A DNA stretch of 64,000 bases, taken from Nostoc sp. S13 (lineage in GTDB: Bacteria; Cyanobacteriota; Cyanobacteriia; Cyanobacteriales; Nostocaceae). The notes under the pieces were generated by a model. It did no database searches. It was not told the origin of the DNA and worked only from the letters and a program-made list of their open reading frames with translations. The first letter of the stretch is position 1. Each line of letters starts with the position of its first letter. Below are positions 53,102 to 62,986 of this stretch, in pieces. The position numbers and the translations under genes are program-made. Where the stretch lies: positions 62,001 to 126,000 of the forward strand of contig NZ_JAQYWQ010000003.1 of assembly GCF_029379315.1 (NCBI RefSeq). The letters run 5' to 3'.

Positions 53102-55096
53102 TTAATGCCTACCTAATATAGTCAAAATAGCCTCTATTAGTAGCTCTGGTTCAATTGGTTTGGAAATATGGCGTTGAAATCCGGCGGCTAGTGCTTGTTG
53201 TTGATCAATTTCTCCAGCATAAGCAGTAAGGGCGATCGCTGGAATTTCTCCGCCTTGGTCAGGCGACTGCTTTCTAATTTGACGAATTAGTGTGTAGCCA
53301 TCCATATCAGGCATACCAATATCACTAATTAGCAAATCAAATTTTGCTTGCTTTAAACTGCTCAGAGCTTGACTAGCTGAGTCCGCTTCAGTCACTTGCG
53401 CCCCATACTGTTCTAGCAGGAAGGCGATAAACTCCCGCGAATCTCTGTCATCATCTACAAGCAACGCTTGCAATTTATTTAGATTGAAGTCTGAGGGATT
53501 ATCAAACTCAGTATCATCTTGATTCTGTTTTACCGCAGCGATAAATGGAAGCTTGACTGTAAATGTTGCTCCTAGCCCTTCTCCAGGACTCGTCGCCTGA
53601 ACGGTTCCTCCGTGCAGCTCAACCAAATGACGCACGATCGCTAACCCCAACCCCAACCCCCCAAATCTTCGGGTCGTTGTCCCATCGGCTTGGCGGAAGT
53701 AGTCAAAGACGTAGGGCAGAAAGTCACCAGAGATGCCCTTGCCAGTGTCGCTGACAATGATTTGAGCATATTCCAAAGGATGAGTATCTACTTCATTCAT
53801 CCCTTCACCTTCATCGTTGATCCTTTTTAACTGCACCTTTACTCGACCACCGTGTGGGGTAAATTTAATCGCATTAGAAAGTAAATTCCAAACAACCTGT
53901 TGCAGGCGACCGGAATCACCCAACACTTGGGCAATGTTCGATTCAAATATTGATTCAATTTGAATAGATTTAGCTTCAGCCGCAAGCCGCACGGTTTCAA
54001 GGGCAGCTTTGATGGTGAATGTTAAACCAATTGGCAGTGTATTCAAACTCAACTTGCCTTGGAGAATACGCGAGACATCGAGCAGATCCTCGATTAGTTG
54101 TGCTTGGAGTTTGGCATTGCGTTCGATCGTTTCGAGCGCATACTGAGTTTTGGCTGCGTCCTGCTGAGTCCTTTGTAGAATTCTTGCCCAACCCAAAATT
54201 GGATTCAGGGGCGATCGCAATTCATGAGACAGCACTGCTAGAAACTCATCTTTGATTCGGTTGGCTTGCTGTGCTTGTTCAGTTTTTTCTTGCAAGGAAA
54301 TCATCAGCTGATTGAGGCGATCGTTCTGATCTTGCAGTAAGGTTTCTGCTTGTTTGCGCTCCGTAATATTTGACAGGATGAAAACCGCGCCTGTGAGAGT
54401 CCCCTGCTGATCAAATACCGGGTCGATAGTTTTGGCAAACCACTGTCCTTTGAACTGAAATTCGAGAATTTGCCGTTGATGAGTTTCTTTAGCACGGTGA
54501 AAACATGTGCCGTCGCCCATTCCCAATTCTGCGTCCATCAACTCATGGTGAGGACAACCTAAAATTTCCTGGGAGGGCTTGCAAAAAATCTGCATTATCG
54601 CTCGATTACAGCGCAGAATTATACCTTCTCGGTCTACTAGACATACGCCGTCGTTGATCGAGTCAAAGGTCGTTTGCCACTCTCGTGCTGAGGAGAGAGC
54701 AGCTTCCTCCGCCTGCCGAATTCGCAGCAGCGATCGCACCGTGGCAAGCAGTTCAATGGGTTCAACTGGTTGTGCTAGATAGGCATCGGCACCACTGTCT
54801 AAGCCTTCTGCTTTATCCTGGCTTTGGACAAAACTTGCAGAAAGGTGTAGCACGGGAATAAAAACCGTTTCGGGGTTTGCCTTAATTTGACGACAGACTT
54901 CAAAGCCGGTGATATCTGGTAGTTGGACATCCAAAATCACTAGAGCAGGCTGGTGCTCGACAACTGCCTCTAATCCTGTTGCTCCACTTGCTGCCTCGAC
55001 GACTGTAAAGCCGGCATTTTGCAAAATACGGGACACAATGTAACGGTTGGTTTCATTATCATCAACATGCAGAATCGTCACCTGTGACTCAGACAT
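53102..55096 (-). CDS. Hybrid histidine kinase: REC-PAS-HisKA-HATPase-REC
   Basis: A 664-residue cytosolic protein. Residues ~6-125 are a receiver (LHVDDNE, LVILDVQLPDITG); ~140-250 a PAS domain (REWQTTFDSINDGVCLVDRE ... ITERKQAE); ~284-350 a HisKA domain with the phospho-His in AVLSHELRSPLNPILGWA; ~385-520 the HATPase (NLLSNAIKFTPHGG, DTGKGI, GGLGLGLAIVRHLVELHGG); ~545-664 a second receiver (LLVDDDRD, LLISDIGMPDMDG, QRHISKPIEPE). In the first receiver the usual Lys before Pro is Gln (AYLAQPVEP), so phosphorylation signalling there may be altered. Overlaps the upstream kinase gene by eight bases. Confidence 0.92.
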   Translation of the reverse strand: MSESQVTILHVDDNETNRYIVSRILQNAGFTVVEAASGATGLEAVVEHQPALVILDVQLPDITGFEVCRQIKANPETVFIPVLHLSASFVQSQDKAEGLDSGADAYLAQPVEPIELLATVRSLLRIRQAEEAALSSAREWQTTFDSINDGVCLVDREGIILRCNRAIMQIFCKPSQEILGCPHHELMDAELGMGDGTCFHRAKETHQRQILEFQFKGQWFAKTIDPVFDQQGTLTGAVFILSNITERKQAETLLQDQNDRLNQLMISLQEKTEQAQQANRIKDEFLAVLSHELRSPLNPILGWARILQRTQQDAAKTQYALETIERNAKLQAQLIEDLLDVSRILQGKLSLNTLPIGLTFTIKAALETVRLAAEAKSIQIESIFESNIAQVLGDSGRLQQVVWNLLSNAIKFTPHGGRVKVQLKRINDEGEGMNEVDTHPLEYAQIIVSDTGKGISGDFLPYVFDYFRQADGTTTRRFGGLGLGLAIVRHLVELHGGTVQATSPGEGLGATFTVKLPFIAAVKQNQDDTEFDNPSDFNLNKLQALLVDDDRDSREFIAFLLEQYGAQVTEADSASQALSSLKQAKFDLLISDIGMPDMDGYTLIRQIRKQSPDQGGEIPAIALTAYAGEIDQQQALAAGFQRHISKPIEPELLIEAILTILGRH

Positions 55097-57239
55097 TGCT
55101 TTTCTCCCAAGCACCCAGAACTAGTCCGGCTTTGACGAGCGCTTCTTGGAGTTGGGCAATTGCCGCCGTTTGAGAGCCTGTTTCTTTAGAAAGAATGGCG
55201 ATGCTTTGTTCAGCTAAACGCTTGTGCACTTCTGCATCCAGTTGGACAGATGAGTGGATGATCACAGGAATCGACTGAGTGACGGAATTGTTTTTAAGCT
55301 GCTTGAGTACATCAAACCCGCTGATCTCTGGCATCTCCAAGTCAAGCACGATCACGCTTGGCTGCTGGCGTTGTGCCAAATTTAATCCTTCTTGCCCGTT
55401 CGCGGCTTCTAAAATACTCAACGGTGTATTTGCCAATAGTTTTTTTATAAGATACCGATAAGCGGGGTCATCGTCAATTAATAAAATTTTTTGAGGTCTA
55501 TTCTGATTAATTAGCGCATTGAGTTTATTCAACAGCGGCAATCTGTCCACAGGCTTAATTAGAAAGCCGTTAGCTCCTAGCGCCAGTGCTTGCTTCTGGT
55601 TATCAATGATGGTAATAATCAGTACAGGGATGGTGCGAGTTGTTTCATCTCCTTTGATTTCTCGCAAGAACGTCCAGCCGTTTTCTCCTTCTAGCATAAT
55701 ATCTAGCATAATCGCCGCCGGTCGAAGTTGTTGTAAGGCAAGCCTTGCCTGGGCTAAGGTGCGGGTCGCAATTAATTGATAGGTTGACTCCTGAAGGTGC
55801 TTTTCGTAAATAAATAGTGTTTCTGGATGATCTTCAACCACCAGAATGGGCAGGCGAGTTGGCTCAAGTGATGTGATGGGTTGCAGTAGGGTGGGAAATT
55901 CAGTCGCATGTGGGTAGGCGATCGGAATTGATACCGTAAAGGTGGAGCCTTGACCCAGATCACTTGTAAGGGAAACGCTGCCGCCCAGTAGCTCTGCCAG
56001 CTTGCGCGATAACGGCAGTCCTAACCCGGTTCCCTTCACCTGCTTTTGCAAAGGGGACTCAATTTGCACAAAATCCTCAAAAATGCGCTCTTGATCGGCT
56101 GGAGCAATGCCGATGCCCGTATCTGATACGGAGAATATTACAGTATAACCTATTTGTATCGCACTAACGCGTACCTCTCCCTGCTCCGTAAATTTAAGCG
56201 CATTCGAGACAAAGTTTCTCAAAATTTGAGCGACTTTGCCCTCATCGGTATAGAGCGGAGGTATGGTATCGGGTTCCTCCACAATCAGAGCGACAGAGGA
56301 GCCTTGAACCAATAATGGGCGCAGCATTCCTCGCAGCGTGGCAAACAAGTCGCTGACTTCAAAGGAACTAGGACGCACTTCAATTTTGCCAGCTTCCACC
56401 TTTGCCAAATCCAGCAGGTCATTGACTAACTCTGATAATCCGCTCGCCGCCTTTTGGATAAATGTCACCTGCTTTTCTTGCTCGGTAGTCAAATCGCCAT
56501 CCATCCGGGCCAGCAAGATCCGAGAGAGCGACAAAATCGAGTTCAGGGGGGTGCGAAACTCATGGCTCATGTTCGAGAGAAAACGGGTTTTTAGCTCGTT
56601 TACCTGTTGCAAAGAACTTGCCTTCTCATCCAGTTCTGCATAGAGGGCAATTACACCGCGATTGGTATCTTCTAGTTCCCGGTTTAGATGGGTAAGTTCT
56701 TCCTCGCGCTTCCGTAGCTCTGCCATTGCCCGCAGTAACTCCTGGTTTTGTCGCTGGATTTCTTCATAGGGATTCTGGGGCGATCGCCCGATCACGGTTT
56801 CTCGAATCTGCTGCAATTGCGAATCGGTGAAAATAGGTGTGCGCTTCGACAACCTTTTGCTCATCACCACCGTTGTTCCCTGTCCCGGCAGCGATTCAAT
56901 CTCAAAGAAATCCATCAGTCTGCGGGTGCCCACGATGCCCAGCCCCATTCCTGTGCTAGAGGTGTAGCGTCCTGCCAAAACGTCTACCAGATTAGGAATG
57001 CCCCCACCCCAATCTTGAATCCGAATCAGAAACGCCTGAGGCTCTCTTTGCACACAAAATTCAACCCTTCCGCCTTTGGCATACTGAAACGCGTTGCGGG
57101 CAATTTCTGAAACTGCCGTTGCCAATCGTGCCTGATCTTGAGTATCCAAGCCCAACTGCTCGGCGATCTCGCGAGTTCGTTGCCGAGCTTGCACAACATC
57201 CTGTTCATAGTGGATTTCGATCGTGAAAACGATTGTCAT
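55089..57239 (-). CDS. Hybrid kinase: RsbT-like ATPase-HisKA-HATPase-REC-REC
   Basis: A 716-residue protein. Residues ~1-135 are a serine-kinase-type ATPase like RsbT/RsbW (LATAVSEIARNAFQYAKGGR, GMGLGIVGTRRLMDFFEI). A coiled-coil at ~170-220 leads to a HisKA (FLSNMSHEFRTPLNSILS) and a HATPase (NFVSNALKFTEQGEVRVS, DTGIGIA, GTGLGLPLSRKLAELLGG). Two receivers follow (LVVEDHPE ... AIMLDIMLEGENG; LLIDDDPA ... VIVLDLEMPEISG). The fusion of a partner-switching ATPase with a two-component kinase directly links the two signalling styles. It overlaps the phosphatase gene by four bases (ATGA). Confidence 0.92.
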   Translation of the reverse strand: MTIVFTIEIHYEQDVVQARQRTREIAEQLGLDTQDQARLATAVSEIARNAFQYAKGGRVEFCVQREPQAFLIRIQDWGGGIPNLVDVLAGRYTSSTGMGLGIVGTRRLMDFFEIESLPGQGTTVVMSKRLSKRTPIFTDSQLQQIRETVIGRSPQNPYEEIQRQNQELLRAMAELRKREEELTHLNRELEDTNRGVIALYAELDEKASSLQQVNELKTRFLSNMSHEFRTPLNSILSLSRILLARMDGDLTTEQEKQVTFIQKAASGLSELVNDLLDLAKVEAGKIEVRPSSFEVSDLFATLRGMLRPLLVQGSSVALIVEEPDTIPPLYTDEGKVAQILRNFVSNALKFTEQGEVRVSAIQIGYTVIFSVSDTGIGIAPADQERIFEDFVQIESPLQKQVKGTGLGLPLSRKLAELLGGSVSLTSDLGQGSTFTVSIPIAYPHATEFPTLLQPITSLEPTRLPILVVEDHPETLFIYEKHLQESTYQLIATRTLAQARLALQQLRPAAIMLDIMLEGENGWTFLREIKGDETTRTIPVLIITIIDNQKQALALGANGFLIKPVDRLPLLNKLNALINQNRPQKILLIDDDPAYRYLIKKLLANTPLSILEAANGQEGLNLAQRQQPSVIVLDLEMPEISGFDVLKQLKNNSVTQSIPVIIHSSVQLDAEVHKRLAEQSIAILSKETGSQTAAIAQLQEALVKAGLVLGAWEKSNV

Positions 57240-58243
57240 CTGCCCATTCCTTTAACCACTAACACCGTTACATCGTCCCGTTCTCGGTTAAAGTCCCGGT
57301 ATAGGACACCTGCAATCAAACTAGGATGTTTTTGACTCAAGCCTGGATAGCGATCAAGCTGCCACTTAGTGCCTAATCCGTCAGAATGCATAATTAAAAG
57401 TCCGTTGGAATACCAAGGGTAGCTAAACTCTTGAATTTTGCGGATTTCATGCCCGACCGTGCCGTTATGAGACAGCAGATTGTGGTGTTCAGTAAACGAG
57501 AAAATGCTGGCAGCGATATTGCCAATTCCGGCAAAGCAGACAGACTGTTGTTCAAAGTCTATTTCGGCAATGGCGAGTACTGCTCCTCGTGTACTTCGCA
57601 AGGCTGTGTGGGCAGCTTCCAGGATTGCACCAGGAGAACGATGATGATTGTCTTGAAAGATTCTCAGGGCTTGTGAAGCAGCACTGGCAGCCGCAGGTCC
57701 ATGTCCTAAGCCATCGGCTACTAGCAACAGGCTACGGCGACCATCGACAACACAAGCCCAGGCATCTCCTGAAACGTCTTCTCCTCGTTTGGGCAAACAG
57801 ATCGCCCCAATTTCTAAGGTCTTTTCAGGCGGATGGGGTGTTGAGTCTGACCAGAGGTGGGCGAGGAGCGCTGTCCCTTGGTTGGGAATGGAGTAAATTT
57901 CAAATAAACCAGAGAGGCGACGAATTGCGCCCATTCCATTGCCTGACGTTCCAGCTGTGGAAAAGCCATCTTGCAAACACTGATCTACATCGACCATGCC
58001 CGATCCTTTATCAAGCGACAAAACTTCAATGCCGACTGCTAAATGCTGGTTGAGCGTCCGCAGCAGCACCACTCCGCCATGAGCGTGCTGCACTAGATTG
58101 TTAGCAATCTCTGTTACCACAATGCCAACCTTGCCCCGTTCCGTTTCCTGAAAGCCGAGCCGAGTTGCCAAAGCCATCGCTACCCGTCGAGCTTCCCCGG
58201 TCTGGCTGGATTCAGTGATTGTGATAGCGACAGATTCTCTCAT
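57236..58243 (-). CDS. RsbT-like ATPase fused to SpoIIE/PP2C-type phosphatase
   Basis: A 335-residue protein. Residues ~5-135 are a GHKL ATPase (KVGIVVTEIANNLVQHAHGG, GNGMGAIRRLSGLFEI). Residues ~150-335 are a PP2C-type phosphatase like RsbX/SpoIIE (RGEDVSGDAWACVVDGRRS, LVADGLGHGPAAASAASQ, FAGIGNIAAS, IMHSDGLGTKW, RDDVTVLVV), carrying the metal-binding Asp residues. It could dephosphorylate RsbS or RsbR and so reset the stressosome. The ATG at 58243 is one base after the RsbT stop. Confidence 0.9.
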   Translation of the reverse strand: MRESVAITITESSQTGEARRVAMALATRLGFQETERGKVGIVVTEIANNLVQHAHGGVVLLRTLNQHLAVGIEVLSLDKGSGMVDVDQCLQDGFSTAGTSGNGMGAIRRLSGLFEIYSIPNQGTALLAHLWSDSTPHPPEKTLEIGAICLPKRGEDVSGDAWACVVDGRRSLLLVADGLGHGPAAASAASQALRIFQDNHHRSPGAILEAAHTALRSTRGAVLAIAEIDFEQQSVCFAGIGNIAASIFSFTEHHNLLSHNGTVGHEIRKIQEFSYPWYSNGLLIMHSDGLGTKWQLDRYPGLSQKHPSLIAGVLYRDFNRERDDVTVLVVKGMGR

Positions 58244-58244
58244 T

Positions 58245-58649
58245 TTATTTCCATCGTACAATTTTTACCCGTGTCCCTTCTCCCACCGCAGATTGAATTT
58301 CAAACTCGTTGGCAAGTCGTTTGGCACCGCCCAGCCCCATACCCAATCCACCCCCAGTAGTAAACCCATCCTTCAGCGCCAACTCAATATTAGAAATTCC
58401 CGGGCCATGATCTTCAAAGGTCAGCCTGAGTCCTCGTCGTCCCCCTTCCTGAAGCGTTTCTAGCTTTACTGTGCCGCCTCCTCCATAGTCTAGGGTATTG
58501 CGGGCTAACTCACTGGCGGCAGTCACAATTTTAGTTTGGTCTACTAAACCAAAGCCAATCTCCACAGCAAACTGGCGCACGGTCTGCCGAACTAAGACTA
58601 CATCTGTAGAAGATTCAATGTCCATCGTTTCAGTCTTCTGGATCGTCAT
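58245..58649 (-). CDS. rsbT: RsbT-type serine/threonine kinase (anti-sigma regulatory factor)
   Basis: A 134-residue GHKL ATPase. The N box is KIVTAASELARNTLDYGGGG, followed by FEDHGPGI and GGGLGMGLGGAKRLANEF. RsbT binds the RsbR-RsbS stressosome and phosphorylates it; on release it switches on the downstream partner. GGAG six bases before the ATG at 58649 decides this start, which makes the gene overlap rsbS by 20 bases. Confidence 0.9.
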   Translation of the reverse strand: MTIQKTETMDIESSTDVVLVRQTVRQFAVEIGFGLVDQTKIVTAASELARNTLDYGGGGTVKLETLQEGGRRGLRLTFEDHGPGISNIELALKDGFTTGGGLGMGLGGAKRLANEFEIQSAVGEGTRVKIVRWK

Positions 58650-59043
58650 CTGCTCTCCATTTGGTGGCAGTGATTTGATCTGTGGTTTTATCGAGTGATG
58701 ATCGCAACAGTGCCATGCCCTTTTCGACATTTAGGGCAGTGCGAATGCCCGTCAGCGATAGCCCCAATTCCACTAAGGTGATTGCGACAGCAGGCTGCAT
58801 TCCAACGACAACTGTTTGTGCATCCAGCACCCTTGACATTCTGGCAATGTTGCTTAAAATTCTCCCAATGAAGGAATCAACAATCTCTAATGCAGAAATA
58901 TCGATTAGGACACCGTGAGCATGAGTTTGAGTGATGCGGTTGGTCAGGTCATCCTGTAGCGTCATGGCGAGGCGATCGTGCATGTCTACTTGGATTGTCA
59001 CAAGCAGTAAATCGCCCATTTTGAGTATGGGAATGCGTTCCAT
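58630..59043 (-). CDS. rsbS: RsbS-type STAS-domain antagonist
   Basis: A 137-residue STAS protein that matches RsbS throughout: ERIPILKMGDLLLVTIQVDM, HDRLAMTLQDDLTNRI, and GVLIDISALEIVDSFIGRIL, in which the conserved Ser (in IVDSFIGR) is the RsbT phosphorylation site. It would form the core of the stressosome with RsbR and hold RsbT. The tail ADDDPED is acidic. The ATG at 59043 is used; a GTG 15 bases earlier is also possible. Confidence 0.92.
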   Translation of the reverse strand: MERIPILKMGDLLLVTIQVDMHDRLAMTLQDDLTNRITQTHAHGVLIDISALEIVDSFIGRILSNIARMSRVLDAQTVVVGMQPAVAITLVELGLSLTGIRTALNVEKGMALLRSSLDKTTDQITATKWRADDDPED

Positions 59044-59058
59044 TGGTCTTCTATCCAC

Positions 59059-59910
59059 CTATTTGGGTTGAGAGCGGGTGATGCTCACTCCCATCCGTTT
59101 TAGCGCCGTGAGAAAGGCATCGGCTAACGTTGCCTTTGTTGTGACATTAGCCAAATCAATGCCGAGGTAGACGATTGTTTGGGCAATTTGAGGACGAATG
59201 CCACTGATCATACAATCGGCTCCCATGAGACGGGCAGCAGTAACGGTCTTGAGCAGATGTTGAGCAGTGAGGGTATCGACGGTGGGAACCCCAGTAATGT
59301 CAATGATCGCAACTTCTGACTCGGTTTCGACAATCTTCTGCAATAACGATTCCATCACTATTTGAGTGCGGGCACTATCCAGAGTGCCGATAATCGGCAA
59401 TGCCAAAATTCCCTCCCAGAGTTTAACTACTGGGGTAGACAGCTCCATCAACTCTTCCTGCTGTCGCAAAATCACCTCTTCCCGTGTCTTCTGATATACT
59501 TCCATGATCAGCAATCCCATCTGATCGAGTAAGTTGGTGACTAGCCAGATTTCTTCACCCAACTCAATCGGGTCTTTCAATTGTTGACGCATCCGGTTAA
59601 AGAGGGGTTGCTTGAACGAAAAAATGAATGTAGCCGTTTCAGTGGGTGTGAAGCCTTTTTGCGATCGCGATCGAGAAATGCTACTCAGCATTTCCCGCAT
59701 CTCCTCCCATGTCACTCCCTCAATATTGGTTAAGTTGCCTTGCTGAACGGCGATCCGAAACAAGCTAAGGAATTCCCGGCACTCCTCCTTGATCTCAGCT
59801 TCTTTAATCAAGCCTCTGCGAAGATTAATAGTGGCTAGCTCCTGAATCCACTCCGATAGCATATCTGCCTCGAAAGTTTCCAGGATGTCTGGTATCTTAC
59901 TTTCGCTCAT
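59059..59910 (-). CDS. rsbR: RsbR-type stressosome sensor (RsbRD_N + STAS)
   Basis: A 283-residue protein. The N-terminal ~150 residues are helical and resemble the RsbRD N-terminal sensor (ETFEADMLSEWIQELATIN, REFLSLFRIAV, GFTPTETATFIFSFKQPLF). After a linker helix, the STAS domain has PVVKLWEGILALPIIGTLDS and IIDITGVPTVDTLTAQHLLK, with the phospho-acceptor Thr (VPTVDT). It is the first gene of the operon RsbR-RsbS-RsbT-phosphatase-two kinases. An earlier ATG at 59937 is possible. Confidence 0.88.
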   Translation of the reverse strand: MSESKIPDILETFEADMLSEWIQELATINLRRGLIKEAEIKEECREFLSLFRIAVQQGNLTNIEGVTWEEMREMLSSISRSRSQKGFTPTETATFIFSFKQPLFNRMRQQLKDPIELGEEIWLVTNLLDQMGLLIMEVYQKTREEVILRQQEELMELSTPVVKLWEGILALPIIGTLDSARTQIVMESLLQKIVETESEVAIIDITGVPTVDTLTAQHLLKTVTAARLMGADCMISGIRPQIAQTIVYLGIDLANVTTKATLADAFLTALKRMGVSITRSQPK

Positions 59911-60148
59911 CGTTCCTGTAAGGGCAACCCCTTTCATTGGTTCAAAATCAGTGTATGACGATTTAGCCTAACCTGAAAGCTGAAGTTGGAGAGCGATTTT
60001 TTCGGGGGCGCGGCGACATGGAATAGTTTATTAAGCTCCCTAACAATGTTGAGACTGGCTTTTTAAGCTAGGATTCGCTAAACTCACAAGATTAAATTTG
60101 CAACTTCAAGACTTCAATTAGCAACCGCCAGAAGACTAAGGTAGAGAT

Positions 60149-61486
60149 GTGGGAAACAAAATACAATTCATAGATAGGCTACGATTGGGTTTCGCGGTGT
60201 CAGTGGCAAAAAGTGTGACGTTTATAGTGCAATTTTTGCGTCTGGGTGCTGCTAGTGTATTACCAGGCTCGATCGCTCGTCGCATTGAACCCCGACTTTT
60301 ACAATTATTGAGTCAGCAAGTTAAAAACGGAGTGATTTTAATTGCTGGTACTAACGGCAAAACCACTACAGCACTGCTTTTATGCACGATATTAGAACGC
60401 AAGGGTTATCGCATCGCTCATAATTCTACAGGTGCAAATCTGGAAAATGGCTTGATCAGTGCGTTGTTGGAAAGCACCAACTTACTAGGTACACTAGATG
60501 TTGATTACGCGATTTTGGAAGTTGATGAAAATATTGTACCAAGAGTATTAACGCCACTCCAGCCGCGAATTATTCTCTGTTTAAACTTATTTCGCGACCA
60601 ACTCGATAGGTACGGCGAAGTAGACACAATTAGTAAGCGTTGGACAAAAGTTATTTCTACCCTACCAGTAGAAACGGTGGTAATTCCCAATGCTGATGAC
60701 CCAACTTTATCTAACCTCGGTCAGCAGTTACCCCAACGGGTGTTATTCTTTGGCTTGAATGAACCAGAACATTATTTAGAAGCTATTCCTCACGCTGTTG
60801 ATTCTATCTATTGTCCCAGATGTGGACATTCCTTAGATTACAAGGGTGTTTATTTGTCTCATTTGGGAGATTTTACTTGTCCCAAGTGTGGTTTTACTAA
60901 AAGTAAACCGACTCTCGAAAGTAGTGAATGGTCGCAGATTTTGGTTGGTTTGTACAACAAATATAATACTTTAGCTGCTGCTACTGCGGCTATTGAGTTG
61001 GGAGTTGATGAACTAACAATCAGAGATACTATTAATAATTTCCAAGCGGCATTTGGTCGTGCTGAAGATTTAGTAATTAACGGTAAACGGGTGCGGATAT
61101 TATTATCAAAAAATCCTGTGGGAACCAATGAAACCATTCGTGTAGTTACTCAAAGCACAGATAAAACCACACTGCTGGTATTGAACGATCGCACACCCGA
61201 TGGTACTGATGTATCCTGGATTTGGGACGTGGATACGGAAAAATTAGTCGAACGCGGAGGGACTTTAGTAGTGAGTGGCGATCGCGTCTACGATTTGGCT
61301 CTACGTCTACGTTACAGTGAAAAGTCCCCTGAGAGTACGTTAAATTTAATTGTGGAAGAAGATTTGCGACAGGCGATCGCTACTGCATTAGAGCATACAC
61401 CAGACAATGAAACTTTGCACATTCTGCCTACCTATTCAGCCATGTTAGAAGTGCGAGAAGTTCTCACTGGGCGGAAAATTCTTTAA
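60149..61486 (+). CDS. murT: Lipid II isoglutaminyl synthase ligase subunit MurT
   Basis: A 445-residue Mur ligase-type protein. The P-loop is LIAGTNGKTTTALLL (residues ~64-78). A Zn-ribbon CPRCGHSLDYKG ... TCPKCGFTK is inserted in the middle domain, as in MurT. The C-terminal DUF1727 has LNDRTPDGTDVSWIWDVD. MurT activates the D-Glu carboxylate of lipid II and uses NH3 from GatD. A GTG at 60149 is the start; an overlapping ATG two bases earlier is out of frame. GatD lies downstream, separated by a DinB-like gene. Confidence 0.93.
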   Translation: MGNKIQFIDRLRLGFAVSVAKSVTFIVQFLRLGAASVLPGSIARRIEPRLLQLLSQQVKNGVILIAGTNGKTTTALLLCTILERKGYRIAHNSTGANLENGLISALLESTNLLGTLDVDYAILEVDENIVPRVLTPLQPRIILCLNLFRDQLDRYGEVDTISKRWTKVISTLPVETVVIPNADDPTLSNLGQQLPQRVLFFGLNEPEHYLEAIPHAVDSIYCPRCGHSLDYKGVYLSHLGDFTCPKCGFTKSKPTLESSEWSQILVGLYNKYNTLAAATAAIELGVDELTIRDTINNFQAAFGRAEDLVINGKRVRILLSKNPVGTNETIRVVTQSTDKTTLLVLNDRTPDGTDVSWIWDVDTEKLVERGGTLVVSGDRVYDLALRLRYSEKSPESTLNLIVEEDLRQAIATALEHTPDNETLHILPTYSAMLEVREVLTGRKIL

Positions 61487-61489
61487 ATT

Positions 61490-61615
61490 AGGGAGTGTGG
61501 AGTGGGGAGTGGGGAGTTTAGAGTTAGGAATTGGAAAAAATTCGTGCCCAATGCCCAATGCCCAATGCCCCATGCCCAATGCCCAATGCCCAATGCCCAA
61601 TGCCCAAAGACATAG
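61490..61615. repeat. Heptanucleotide repeat block (CCAATGC)
   Basis: CCAATGC units and GGGGAGT units repeat in tandem; about ten units of CCCAATG or CCCCATG. Confidence 0.85.
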
Positions 61616-61637
61616 ATAAATCACTTAAATTTGCGAT

Positions 61638-62129
61638 ATGCTCATTCAACACTTCCAGATGCTCTCACGCTACAATTCTTTGGCAAATCGTCGGTTGTAT
61701 GACGTTTGTTCACTAGTTTCAGATGTAGAACTCAAGCAGACTCGACCAGCATTTTTCAAAAGTATTTATGGGACACTGAATCATATTATGATCGGCGACC
61801 GCATTTGGATGGGGCGCTTTACAGGTGAAGAGATGTCATCTCAAGGACTTGATGGTATCCTCTATGATGAATTTGAGGAATTGTGTGCAGCCCGTGTTTT
61901 AGAAGATGAGAGGATCACAGCATTTATTGAGGAGCTAGATGATGACTTCTTGAAGGGAATAATTACTTATAAAAATAATCAAGGTAAAATTTATCGCGAT
62001 TCCGTGAATCTATTGCTAGCACATTTTTTCAACCATCAGACACATCACCGAGGACAAATTCACGATATGCTAACCCAAACGGAAATTGCTCCTCCAAGTC
62101 TGGATATGCACAGAGTTATTTCACCATAA
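61638..62129 (+). CDS. DinB-family four-helix protein
   Basis: A 163-residue DinB-type protein. It starts MLIQHFQMLSRYNSLANRRL, with GTLNHIMIGDRIWMGRF (first metal His) and HFFNHQTHHRGQIHDML (the H-x3-H pair), the three His metal site of DinB/YfiT proteins. Members bind divalent metals, with thiol-dependent or unknown activities. It lies between MurT and GatD on the same strand, possibly in the same transcript. Confidence 0.85.
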   Translation: MLIQHFQMLSRYNSLANRRLYDVCSLVSDVELKQTRPAFFKSIYGTLNHIMIGDRIWMGRFTGEEMSSQGLDGILYDEFEELCAARVLEDERITAFIEELDDDFLKGIITYKNNQGKIYRDSVNLLLAHFFNHQTHHRGQIHDMLTQTEIAPPSLDMHRVISP

Positions 62130-62167
62130 GTTGATAAAAACTATTAGTTATTAATCAAAATTTATTT

Positions 62168-62986
62168 ATGAGTTCTCAAAATTTGGAATTAACAATTGGT
62201 TGGTTGTACCCGACGCTGATGAGTACCTATGGCGATCGCGGTAATGTAATTACTATAGAACGTCGCGCTCAGTGGCGGGGATACGATGTTAAAGTGTTAC
62301 CCCTAGATCAAAATGCCACAGCCGCAGATATTAAAACTGTAGATGTAATCGTGGGTGGTGGCGCACAAGACCGTCAGCAAGAAATTGTCATGCGTGATTT
62401 GCAAGGTGCAAAAGCCGACGCCATGCGCGAGAAAATTGAAAATGGAACACCGGGAGTTTTTACCTGTGGTTCACCCCAATTACTGGGACACTATTATGAA
62501 CCAGGTTTGGGACAACGGATTGATGGTTTGGGAATACTCGATTTAGTTTCCGTTCATCCTGGTGAAAATACTAAGCGCTGTATTGGTAACTTGGTAATTG
62601 AAGTGACAGCTTCACGTCTGGCACGAGATTTACAAGAGATGACGGGTAGTACACCATATTTGGTAGGCTTTGAAAATCACGGCGGACGCACTAAACTGGG
62701 GAAAGTGGAAGCTTTGGGGCGAGTGGTATATGGTTTGGGAAATAATGGTGAAGATGGTACAGAGGGAGCATTTTATCAGAATGCGATCGCTACTTATTCT
62801 CACGGGCCATTGTTACCGAAAAATCCTTTTGTCGCCGATTGGTTAATTCAAACAGCATTGCGGCTAAAGTATCAGCAGGAAATTACGTTGCAACCTTTGG
62901 ATGATAATCTCGCTGTCCAAGCACGAGAAGCGATGTTTAAGCGGTTGAAAGTGAGTTTACCAAGTGCTGCTGCGGCGAAAGTTTAA
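62168..62986 (+). CDS. gatD: Lipid II isoglutaminyl synthase glutaminase subunit GatD
   Basis: A 272-residue class I glutamine amidotransferase (CobB/CobQ-like). The nucleophilic Cys is in GVFTCGSPQLLGHYYE, the His in TYSHGPLLPKNPFVAD, preceded by LVGFENHGGRT, as in GatD. It would supply NH3 to MurT for amidating lipid II D-Glu to D-isoGln. The pair with MurT supports the function. Confidence 0.93.
   Translation: MSSQNLELTIGWLYPTLMSTYGDRGNVITIERRAQWRGYDVKVLPLDQNATAADIKTVDVIVGGGAQDRQQEIVMRDLQGAKADAMREKIENGTPGVFTCGSPQLLGHYYEPGLGQRIDGLGILDLVSVHPGENTKRCIGNLVIEVTASRLARDLQEMTGSTPYLVGFENHGGRTKLGKVEALGRVVYGLGNNGEDGTEGAFYQNAIATYSHGPLLPKNPFVADWLIQTALRLKYQQEITLQPLDDNLAVQAREAMFKRLKVSLPSAAAAKV

What the first reader, a model, noticed from the sequence alone, without database searches (positions are those of the whole stretch)
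53102..59910. Stressosome operon wired to two multi-domain hybrid kinases
Six minus-strand genes overlap or abut: RsbR, RsbS, RsbT, an ATPase-phosphatase fusion, then a kinase with an RsbT-like ATPase fused to HisKA/HATPase and two receivers, then REC-PAS-kinase-REC. Cyanobacteria are not known to use the sigma-B factor that RsbRST controls in Bacillus. Three separate RsbT-like ATPase domains in one operon (58245, 57236, 55089) imply several partners for the STAS proteins. The output is probably a phosphorelay through the fused kinase. RsbRST with two-component partners has been noted in bacteria, but the fusion of an RsbT-like ATPase to a histidine kinase with two receivers is what deserves study.
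Basis: partly seen in the sequence, partly recalled or inferred. Interest (0 to 1): 0.75.

Follow-up and report, generated by a model that had tools for sequence, protein, structure and literature searches.

The report
Stressosome with kinase carrying RsbT-like domain
A stress-sensing gene set in this cyanobacterium includes a histidine kinase that carries its own copy of the stressosome's switch domain; the same gene order recurs widely in bacteria and suggests how stressosomes without sigma-B could pass their signal to a phosphorelay.

Summary
Six minus-strand genes overlap or abut: RsbR, RsbS, RsbT, X (RsbT-like ATPase + RsbX-type phosphatase), K1 (RsbT-like ATPase + coiled coil + HisKA/HATPase + two receivers) and K2 (REC-PAS-HisKA-HATPase-REC). 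It is not unique: the fusion occurs in 13 of 386 genomes of the cyanobacterial phylum, and 85 of 98 loci inspected have contiguous R-S-T-X-K1, in records titled as 11 phyla, including Deinococcus radiodurans, whose operon is mentioned in print. RSTX modules with two-component genes are published. What I did not find in print is a swap: of nine kinases beside RsbRST modules without the fusion, eight carry RsbU_N, the RsbT-docking domain, before the kinase core. Window-type kinases have an RsbT-like ATPase there, and the window's genome has no RsbU_N match. The residue matching SpoIIAB Arg20, a partner contact, is invariant in all three ATPases (279 of 279); the other two known contacts are changed or missing. 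Most likely K1 docks on the RsbR/RsbS core and stress frees or rearranges it to start a phosphorelay. Docking, direction and output are inferred; no structure could be predicted. Verdict: new variant of a known kind.

The parts
59059..59937 (-). RsbR: RsbRD_N sensor domain (about 59590-59892) + STAS (about 59116-59424); start may be 59910
   Evidence: PF14361 92 bits, PF01740 55 bits; matches stressosome RsbR 7o0i, 9o3o; Thr222 and Ser245 conserved in 88/89 and 89/89
58630..59058 (-). RsbS: single STAS; phospho-site Ser62 (codon 58873-58875)
   Evidence: PF01740; E 8e-32 to RsbS 6jhk; Ser in 90/91
58245..58649 (-). RsbT switch kinase (ORF opens at 58730; 58649 is the likely start)
   Evidence: HATPase_c/HATPase_c_2; junctions; Glu, Asn, DxGxG 90/90
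57236..58261 (-). X: RsbT-like ATPase (57872-58207) fused to RsbX-type PP2C (57251-57742); likely start 58243
   Evidence: PF13581, PF07228; best PDB matches 3zt9 and RsbX 3w40; Asp residues 94/94
55089..57239 (-). K1: RsbT-like ATPase (56856-57200), conserved coiled coil (about 56595-56835), HisKA (56388-56591), HATPase (55920-56246), REC1 (about 55509-55844), REC2 (55176-55487)
   Evidence: Pfam; HisKA His 94/94; ATPase residues
53102..55114 (-). K2: REC-PAS-HisKA-HATPase-REC hybrid kinase, likely start 55096
   Evidence: Pfam; acceptor Asp and His present

Best explanation
It is a six-gene stressosome-to-phosphorelay cassette. RsbR and RsbS form the STAS core, with RsbRD_N as sensor. RsbT phosphorylates the core under stress, and X, tethered by its own RsbT-like domain, dephosphorylates and resets it. 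K1 is the output enzyme and carries in cis the domain that elsewhere is the free messenger RsbT: it docks directly on the STAS core, so it needs no RsbU_N to meet released RsbT. Phosphorylation of RsbS/RsbR frees or rearranges K1; the change passes down the conserved coiled coil to HisKA, and phosphate moves to the K1 receivers, K2 and then a receiver protein not encoded beside the operon. Shown: genes, domains, order, conservation, the domain swap. Inferred: docking on STAS, release, direction of control, final output.
For: Contiguous R-S-T-X-K1 in 85 of 98 loci; 9 are cut by contig ends, 3 deviate, 1 was missed by my linker model. Fusion in 13/386; matches to K1's ATPase + linker at E 1e-40 in 61/195 and 3/199 genomes of two other taxa. 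Of nine kinases beside RST modules without the fusion, 8 carry RsbU_N above gathering; all 55 K1 N-termini scanned (window + 54 of 80 loci) match HATPase_c_2, and RsbU_N is not among the 25 families shown of 41; no RsbU_N match in the window's genome, 93% complete. The SpoIIAB Arg20 equivalent is invariant in T 90/90, X 93/93, K1 96/96 and was not in the scan pattern; Arg20 is a SpoIIAA contact (passages of PMC4166321 and PMC10345196). The STAS parts are the most conserved: median identity R_STAS 0.78, S 0.71, T 0.58, K1 kinase core 0.54, K1 ATPase 0.51, R sensor 0.35 over 35 loci. T, X-ATPase and K1-ATPase separate with the fewest possible label changes, in weakly resolved trees.
Against: No binding or structural evidence: structure prediction never completed. 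By sequence the best solved match of K1's N-terminus is the histidine kinase DivL (26 bits), ahead of SpoIIAB (22 bits). Of the three SpoIIAB contacts R20, T49, E104 only R20 is kept: T49 is Arg in K1 and RsbT, and E104 falls in a gap. K1's ATPase keeps kinase residues, so it may be a kinase rather than a dock. Glu45, Arg48 and Asn49 of K1 lie inside the scan pattern TA[VI]SE[IL]ARN for the 80 genome-contig loci; they are independent evidence only in the 18 rows. In 11 of 86 loci with enough downstream sequence no receiver follows K1's kinase core within 700 bases, so the relay is not uniform.
Confidence: 0.48

Rival explanations
1. K1's N-terminal domain is chiefly a Ser/Thr kinase: a second switch kinase that phosphorylates RsbR, RsbS or another STAS protein, so the histidine kinase feeds back on the stressosome instead of reading it.
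For: Catalytic Glu and Mg-binding Asn kept (18/18 in rows not picked by the scan pattern); two sites on RsbR and one on RsbS are conserved.
Against: RsbT already fills this role in the operon; the domain sits where kinases otherwise carry a docking domain.
Confidence: 0.18
2. K1's RsbT-like domain pairs with RsbT itself (GHKL switch kinases dimerise), so released RsbT still carries the message and K1 senses free RsbT.
For: SpoIIAB, the best solved match of RsbT, is dimeric (figure legend of PMC10345196); K1 and T share residues.
Against: The partner-contact Arg is kept in K1 as in T, which suggests STAS contact; no direct test.
Confidence: 0.16
3. The operon feeds a sigma factor through partner-switching proteins elsewhere in the genome. 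This could also be the continuation of the best explanation.
For: REC-PP2C + STAS and/or HATPase sets lie on contigs C124 and C92; in Solirubrobacter loci a REC-PAS-SpoIIE protein takes the K2 slot; on contig C163 a STAS gene lies about 8 kb from the second-best SigBFG match, 166 bits (not examined).
Against: No RsbU_N, no SigBFG match over cut-off; no sigma gene recognised by eye in the ORFs of L196-L198.
Confidence: 0.13

Closest known systems
Deinococcus radiodurans R1 plasmid MP1 operon DR_RS15570-15595 (kinases by position DR_B0028/DR_B0029)
   Same: Same order R-S-T-X-K1-K2, K1 with RsbT-like ATPase; the two kinases are noted in print as thought to be co-regulated with an antisigma-regulation operon, DR_B0028 higher after vacuum exposure (PMC6501615, passages)
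   Different: K1 has one receiver, K2 lacks PAS and the second receiver; the fusion is not mentioned in the passages seen
Vibrio vulnificus rsbRSTX + VvD1/VvD2 stressosome
   Same: RSTX followed by two-component genes, no sigma-B (PMC9237108)
   Different: Globin-coupled RsbR, single-domain RsbX, D1 without RsbU_N and no positive RsbT-D1 interaction (PMC9237108, section 10); c-di-GMP output proposed
RST modules whose kinase has RsbU_N (L052, L053, L054, L177, L178, L180, L181, L182 here)
   Same: Kinase gene directly after RST(X)
   Different: RsbU_N before the kinase core in place of the RsbT-like ATPase; no ATPase found on X in L177 and L178, the other X are 193-211 aa or, in L052, not found
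Bacillus subtilis rsbRSTUVW-sigB-rsbX
   Same: RsbR, RsbS, RsbT, RsbX homologues with matching phospho-sites
   Different: Output through RsbU, RsbV, RsbW and sigma-B

Membership tests
Stressosome RST module | RsbR with N-terminal sensor + STAS, RsbS single STAS, RsbT GHKL kinase in one operon | tested here: met
Stressosome RST module | Conserved phospho-acceptors on RsbS (Ser) and RsbR (Thr) | tested here: met
   aligned with solved RsbS/RsbR; the second RsbR site is Ser
Stressosome RST module | Assembly into a large pseudo-icosahedral complex | not testable with these tools
   needs purification and electron microscopy
RSTX module | RsbX-type PP2C encoded next to RsbT | tested here: met
   here fused to an ATPase
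RsbU_N-linked (RsbT-activated) output | RsbU_N domain on the output protein | tested here: not met
Sigma-B pathway | SigB-class sigma factor under RsbW/RsbV | tested here: not met
   (one model, no match over cut-off); partner-switch sets elsewhere, no link shown
Hybrid histidine kinase | HisKA His, HATPase N/G boxes, receiver Asp | tested here: met

The most novel reading that the evidence does not exclude
Two coupling designs exist for stressosomes without sigma-B: free RsbT reaching RsbU_N on a histidine kinase, and a design in which the messenger is built into the kinase (and a second one into the phosphatase), so kinase, reset phosphatase and RsbT share or compete for one STAS surface. 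The second design is spread over many phyla and joins partner switching and phosphorelay in one polypeptide.
Probability: 0.42. Interest if true: 0.72.

Novelty: new variant of a known kind. Interest (0 to 1): 0.52.

Why it matters
How stressosomes signal in bacteria without sigma-B is open: the V. vulnificus study reports no positive RsbT-D1 interaction and no RsbU_N in most downstream proteins (PMC9237108). A kinase with an RsbT-like domain in cis is a direct candidate for the missing link, testable by binding and autophosphorylation assays, and the gene order is widespread enough to be general. It would also explain why the STAS parts are the most conserved of the cassette: three different ATPases would bind them.

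Tried and rejected
Rejected: a fusion special to this genome; a degenerate fused ATPase; a sigma-B operon. Not done: co-evolution of K1 with STAS (about 90 loci are too few). Failed: fold prediction. The first ATPase tree read one own-genome outgroup (L141) on the wrong strand; one search repeats it corrected. The first check of K1's kinase core cut 41 of 96 rows short; one search repeats it. The motif search for RsbT's DxGxG hit the wrong place; one search gives the counts. Transfer between phyla looks possible in the K1 tree, but two near-identical rows of different phyla (L083, L092) point to mis-binned contigs, so I claim none. Exclusion of RsbU_N and the fusion within genomes is not shown: in the family of G389 8 and 61 of 195 genomes have them, 1 (G505) both, where chance would give 2 to 3. 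In the cyanobacterial phylum 27 of 386 genomes have an RsbU_N match at E 1e-3, 8 over cut-off: 5 clear and 3 marginal partial hits, one of these (G382) in a fusion genome.

Full report
What is there. One search lists six minus-strand ORFs at 53102-59937; one search gives their Pfam domains: RsbR (RsbRD_N + STAS), RsbS (STAS), RsbT (HATPase_c/HATPase_c_2), X (HATPase_c_2 + SpoIIE), K1 (HATPase_c_2, HisKA, HATPase_c, two receivers), K2 (REC, PAS, HisKA, HATPase_c, REC). Junctions overlap or abut, so one operon is likely. RsbS and RsbR match solved stressosome proteins; X's phosphatase best matches 3zt9 and RsbX 3w40. A divergent gene begins at 60149 and about 650 bases lie between K2 and the next long ORF. 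I recognised no DNA-binding response regulator or HPt gene beside the operon (ORF list, by eye).

How common. With K1's first 212 residues, 77 of 386 genomes of the cyanobacterial phylum gave a match at E 1e-3, but 13, the window's included, have the fusion (E 1e-39 or better, open frame of 526 aa or more); in the window's genus 3 of 6 genomes shown. The 12 others were fetched and all keep R-S-T-X-K1. K2 follows on the same strand in six (L039-L044); five of family f6 (L045-L049) have K1 without receivers and no K2 beside it, though L043 of the same family has both; in L050 a hybrid kinase lies on the opposite strand. Of 72,556 plasmid records 106 matched at E 1e-5; six were opened. Of the 98 loci together (12 + 6 + 80), 85 have contiguous R-S-T-X-K1; 9 are cut by a contig end; in L074 no R-S-T was found upstream; in L134 it lies on the other strand; L086 is broken up; L058 (Phaeobacter, HisKA_2 kinase) was missed by my linker model but has the same order by annotation and Pfam. 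Many are metagenome bins; phyla with one locus are weak, and the Nitrospirota locus is nearly identical to one titled Nitrosospira. Further samples at E 1e-40: 61 of 195 genomes of the family of G389 (the Janthinobacterium locus L094), open frames 451-789 aa, and 3 of 199 of the phylum of G388 (Granulicella, L131). These were not opened.

Working residues. RsbS Ser 90/91, RsbR Thr 88/89 and Ser 89/89, phosphatase Asp residues 94/94; RsbT Glu, Asn and DxGxG 90/90; X ATPase the same 93/93; K1 ATPase Glu 96/96, Asn 95/96, DxGxG Asp 94/96; K1 HisKA His 94/94 (4 loci without the kinase part dropped). The scan pattern covers K1 Thr41-Asn49, so Glu45, Arg48 and Asn49 were selected for in those 80 loci; the 18 rows were not picked by it and keep all three. 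K1's second ATPase has Asn, not Glu, four residues before its N-box Asn (93/94), so of K1's two ATPases only the N-terminal one has the switch-kinase Glu. The Arg at K1 19, RsbT 21 and X 25 is invariant in 96, 90 and 93 sequences and aligns with SpoIIAB Arg20 (my reading). Passages of PMC4166321 call SpoIIAB R20, T49 and E104 essential for SpoIIAA binding; passages of PMC10345196 name Glu46 as catalytic base and Asn50 as Mg ligand. Against the reading: T49 corresponds to Arg in RsbT and K1, E104 and Arg105 fall in a gap, and the best solved match of K1's N-terminus is DivL, a histidine kinase (26 bits), before SpoIIAB (22 bits), although Pfam prefers HATPase_c_2 over HATPase_c there (55 against 46 bits).

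The swap. As a control I sought RsbS in 274 genomes of the class of G389: 8 matched. G389 itself has the fusion; the seven others were fetched: five show a kinase after X, two contigs end before one. With four contigs of the cyanobacterial phylum brought in (L051-L054), nine kinases were scanned: eight have RsbU_N above gathering; L051 has a weak match (16.4 bits) and its kinase lies upstream of R. In L052 no X was found and its long frame starts well before RsbU_N. All 55 K1 N-termini scanned match HATPase_c_2; RsbU_N is not among the 25 of 41 families shown (the other 16, each in at most one member, were not displayed). In L053, L180 and L179 a second small ATPase gene stands after RsbT; X's ATPase groups with these (SH-aLRT 88; X alone 97), and the window genome's four other partner-switch-type ATPases stand far off. 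The trees rest on 142 columns and are weakly resolved. So X looks like a fusion of a free second ATPase with RsbX, and K1 like a kinase with an RsbT-like domain where its counterparts have RsbU_N. Which came first is not shown.

Constraint. Over 35 loci chosen by hand for spread (of 97), median pairwise identity is R_STAS 0.78, S 0.71, T 0.58, K1 kinase core 0.54, K1 ATPase 0.51, X phosphatase 0.44, X ATPase 0.42, R sensor 0.35. In control loci S is 0.37 (10 loci), R_STAS 0.50 and T 0.47 (9 each), but these are of mixed types and the cassette loci were ranked by K1 similarity, so only the ranking inside the cassette is safe.

Output. What follows K1 varies: of 86 loci with at least 3.5 kb downstream, 20 read REC then REC-HisKA-REC, 15 have the window's pattern, 11 have no receiver after the kinase core, 12 have one receiver and nothing more; L120, L121 (near copies) and L123 have REC-PAS-SpoIIE in the K2 slot. 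The window's genome holds three REC-PP2C proteins on contigs C124 and C92 beside STAS and/or HATPase genes (domains partly by eye). A relay into such a phosphatase is possible but untested. No RsbU_N and no SigBFG match over cut-off; a STAS gene about 8 kb from the second-best SigBFG match on C163 was not examined.

Literature. PMC9237108 (section 10 read, and passages): RSTX modules in Cyanobacteria and others, eleven downstream types including HisKA/REC relays, some with RsbU_N, no positive RsbT-D1 interaction. PMC10014275, PMC10436020, PMC4976288, PMC7522486, PMC8256260: passages only. PMC6501615 (passages) mentions the D. radiodurans kinases and cites Makarova 2001, which is not held; mapping them to K1 and K2 is by position. 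No description of the RsbT-kinase fusion appeared in the listings of searches or in the passages opened; Pane-Farre 2005 and 2017 were not read and may hold it.

Noticed in passing
L196 2530-6995, L197 2422-3885, L198 120-3115 (window's genome, other contigs): Three REC-PP2C phosphatases, each beside a STAS and/or HATPase gene; L196 also has a hybrid kinase with an apparent HPt end. Possible outputs of the relay (domains by eye).
   Followed up: partly
L120 and L121 8674-10080, L123 8395-10101: In Solirubrobacter a REC-PAS-SpoIIE protein takes the place of K2 (Pfam for L120 only).
   Followed up: partly
L045-L049: Five loci of family f6 have longer gaps between the genes, K1 without receivers, no adjacent K2, and downstream a gene that looks like an MBOAT membrane protein (label from recall).
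   Followed up: no
L136 5141-5964: Two RsbT-like genes in tandem before X in the SZAS-4 bin.
   Followed up: no
L057 3347-4218: RsbR annotated as two genes on a Paraburkholderia plasmid; decay or sequencing error. Described only.
   Followed up: no
window 60149-62986: Divergent genes that look like murT/gatD (recalled labels), possibly sharing the roughly 210-base region upstream of rsbR.
   Followed up: no
G000 contig C163 (L004, L160): A STAS gene about 8 kb from a sigma gene with 166 bits to SigBFG; not examined.
   Followed up: no
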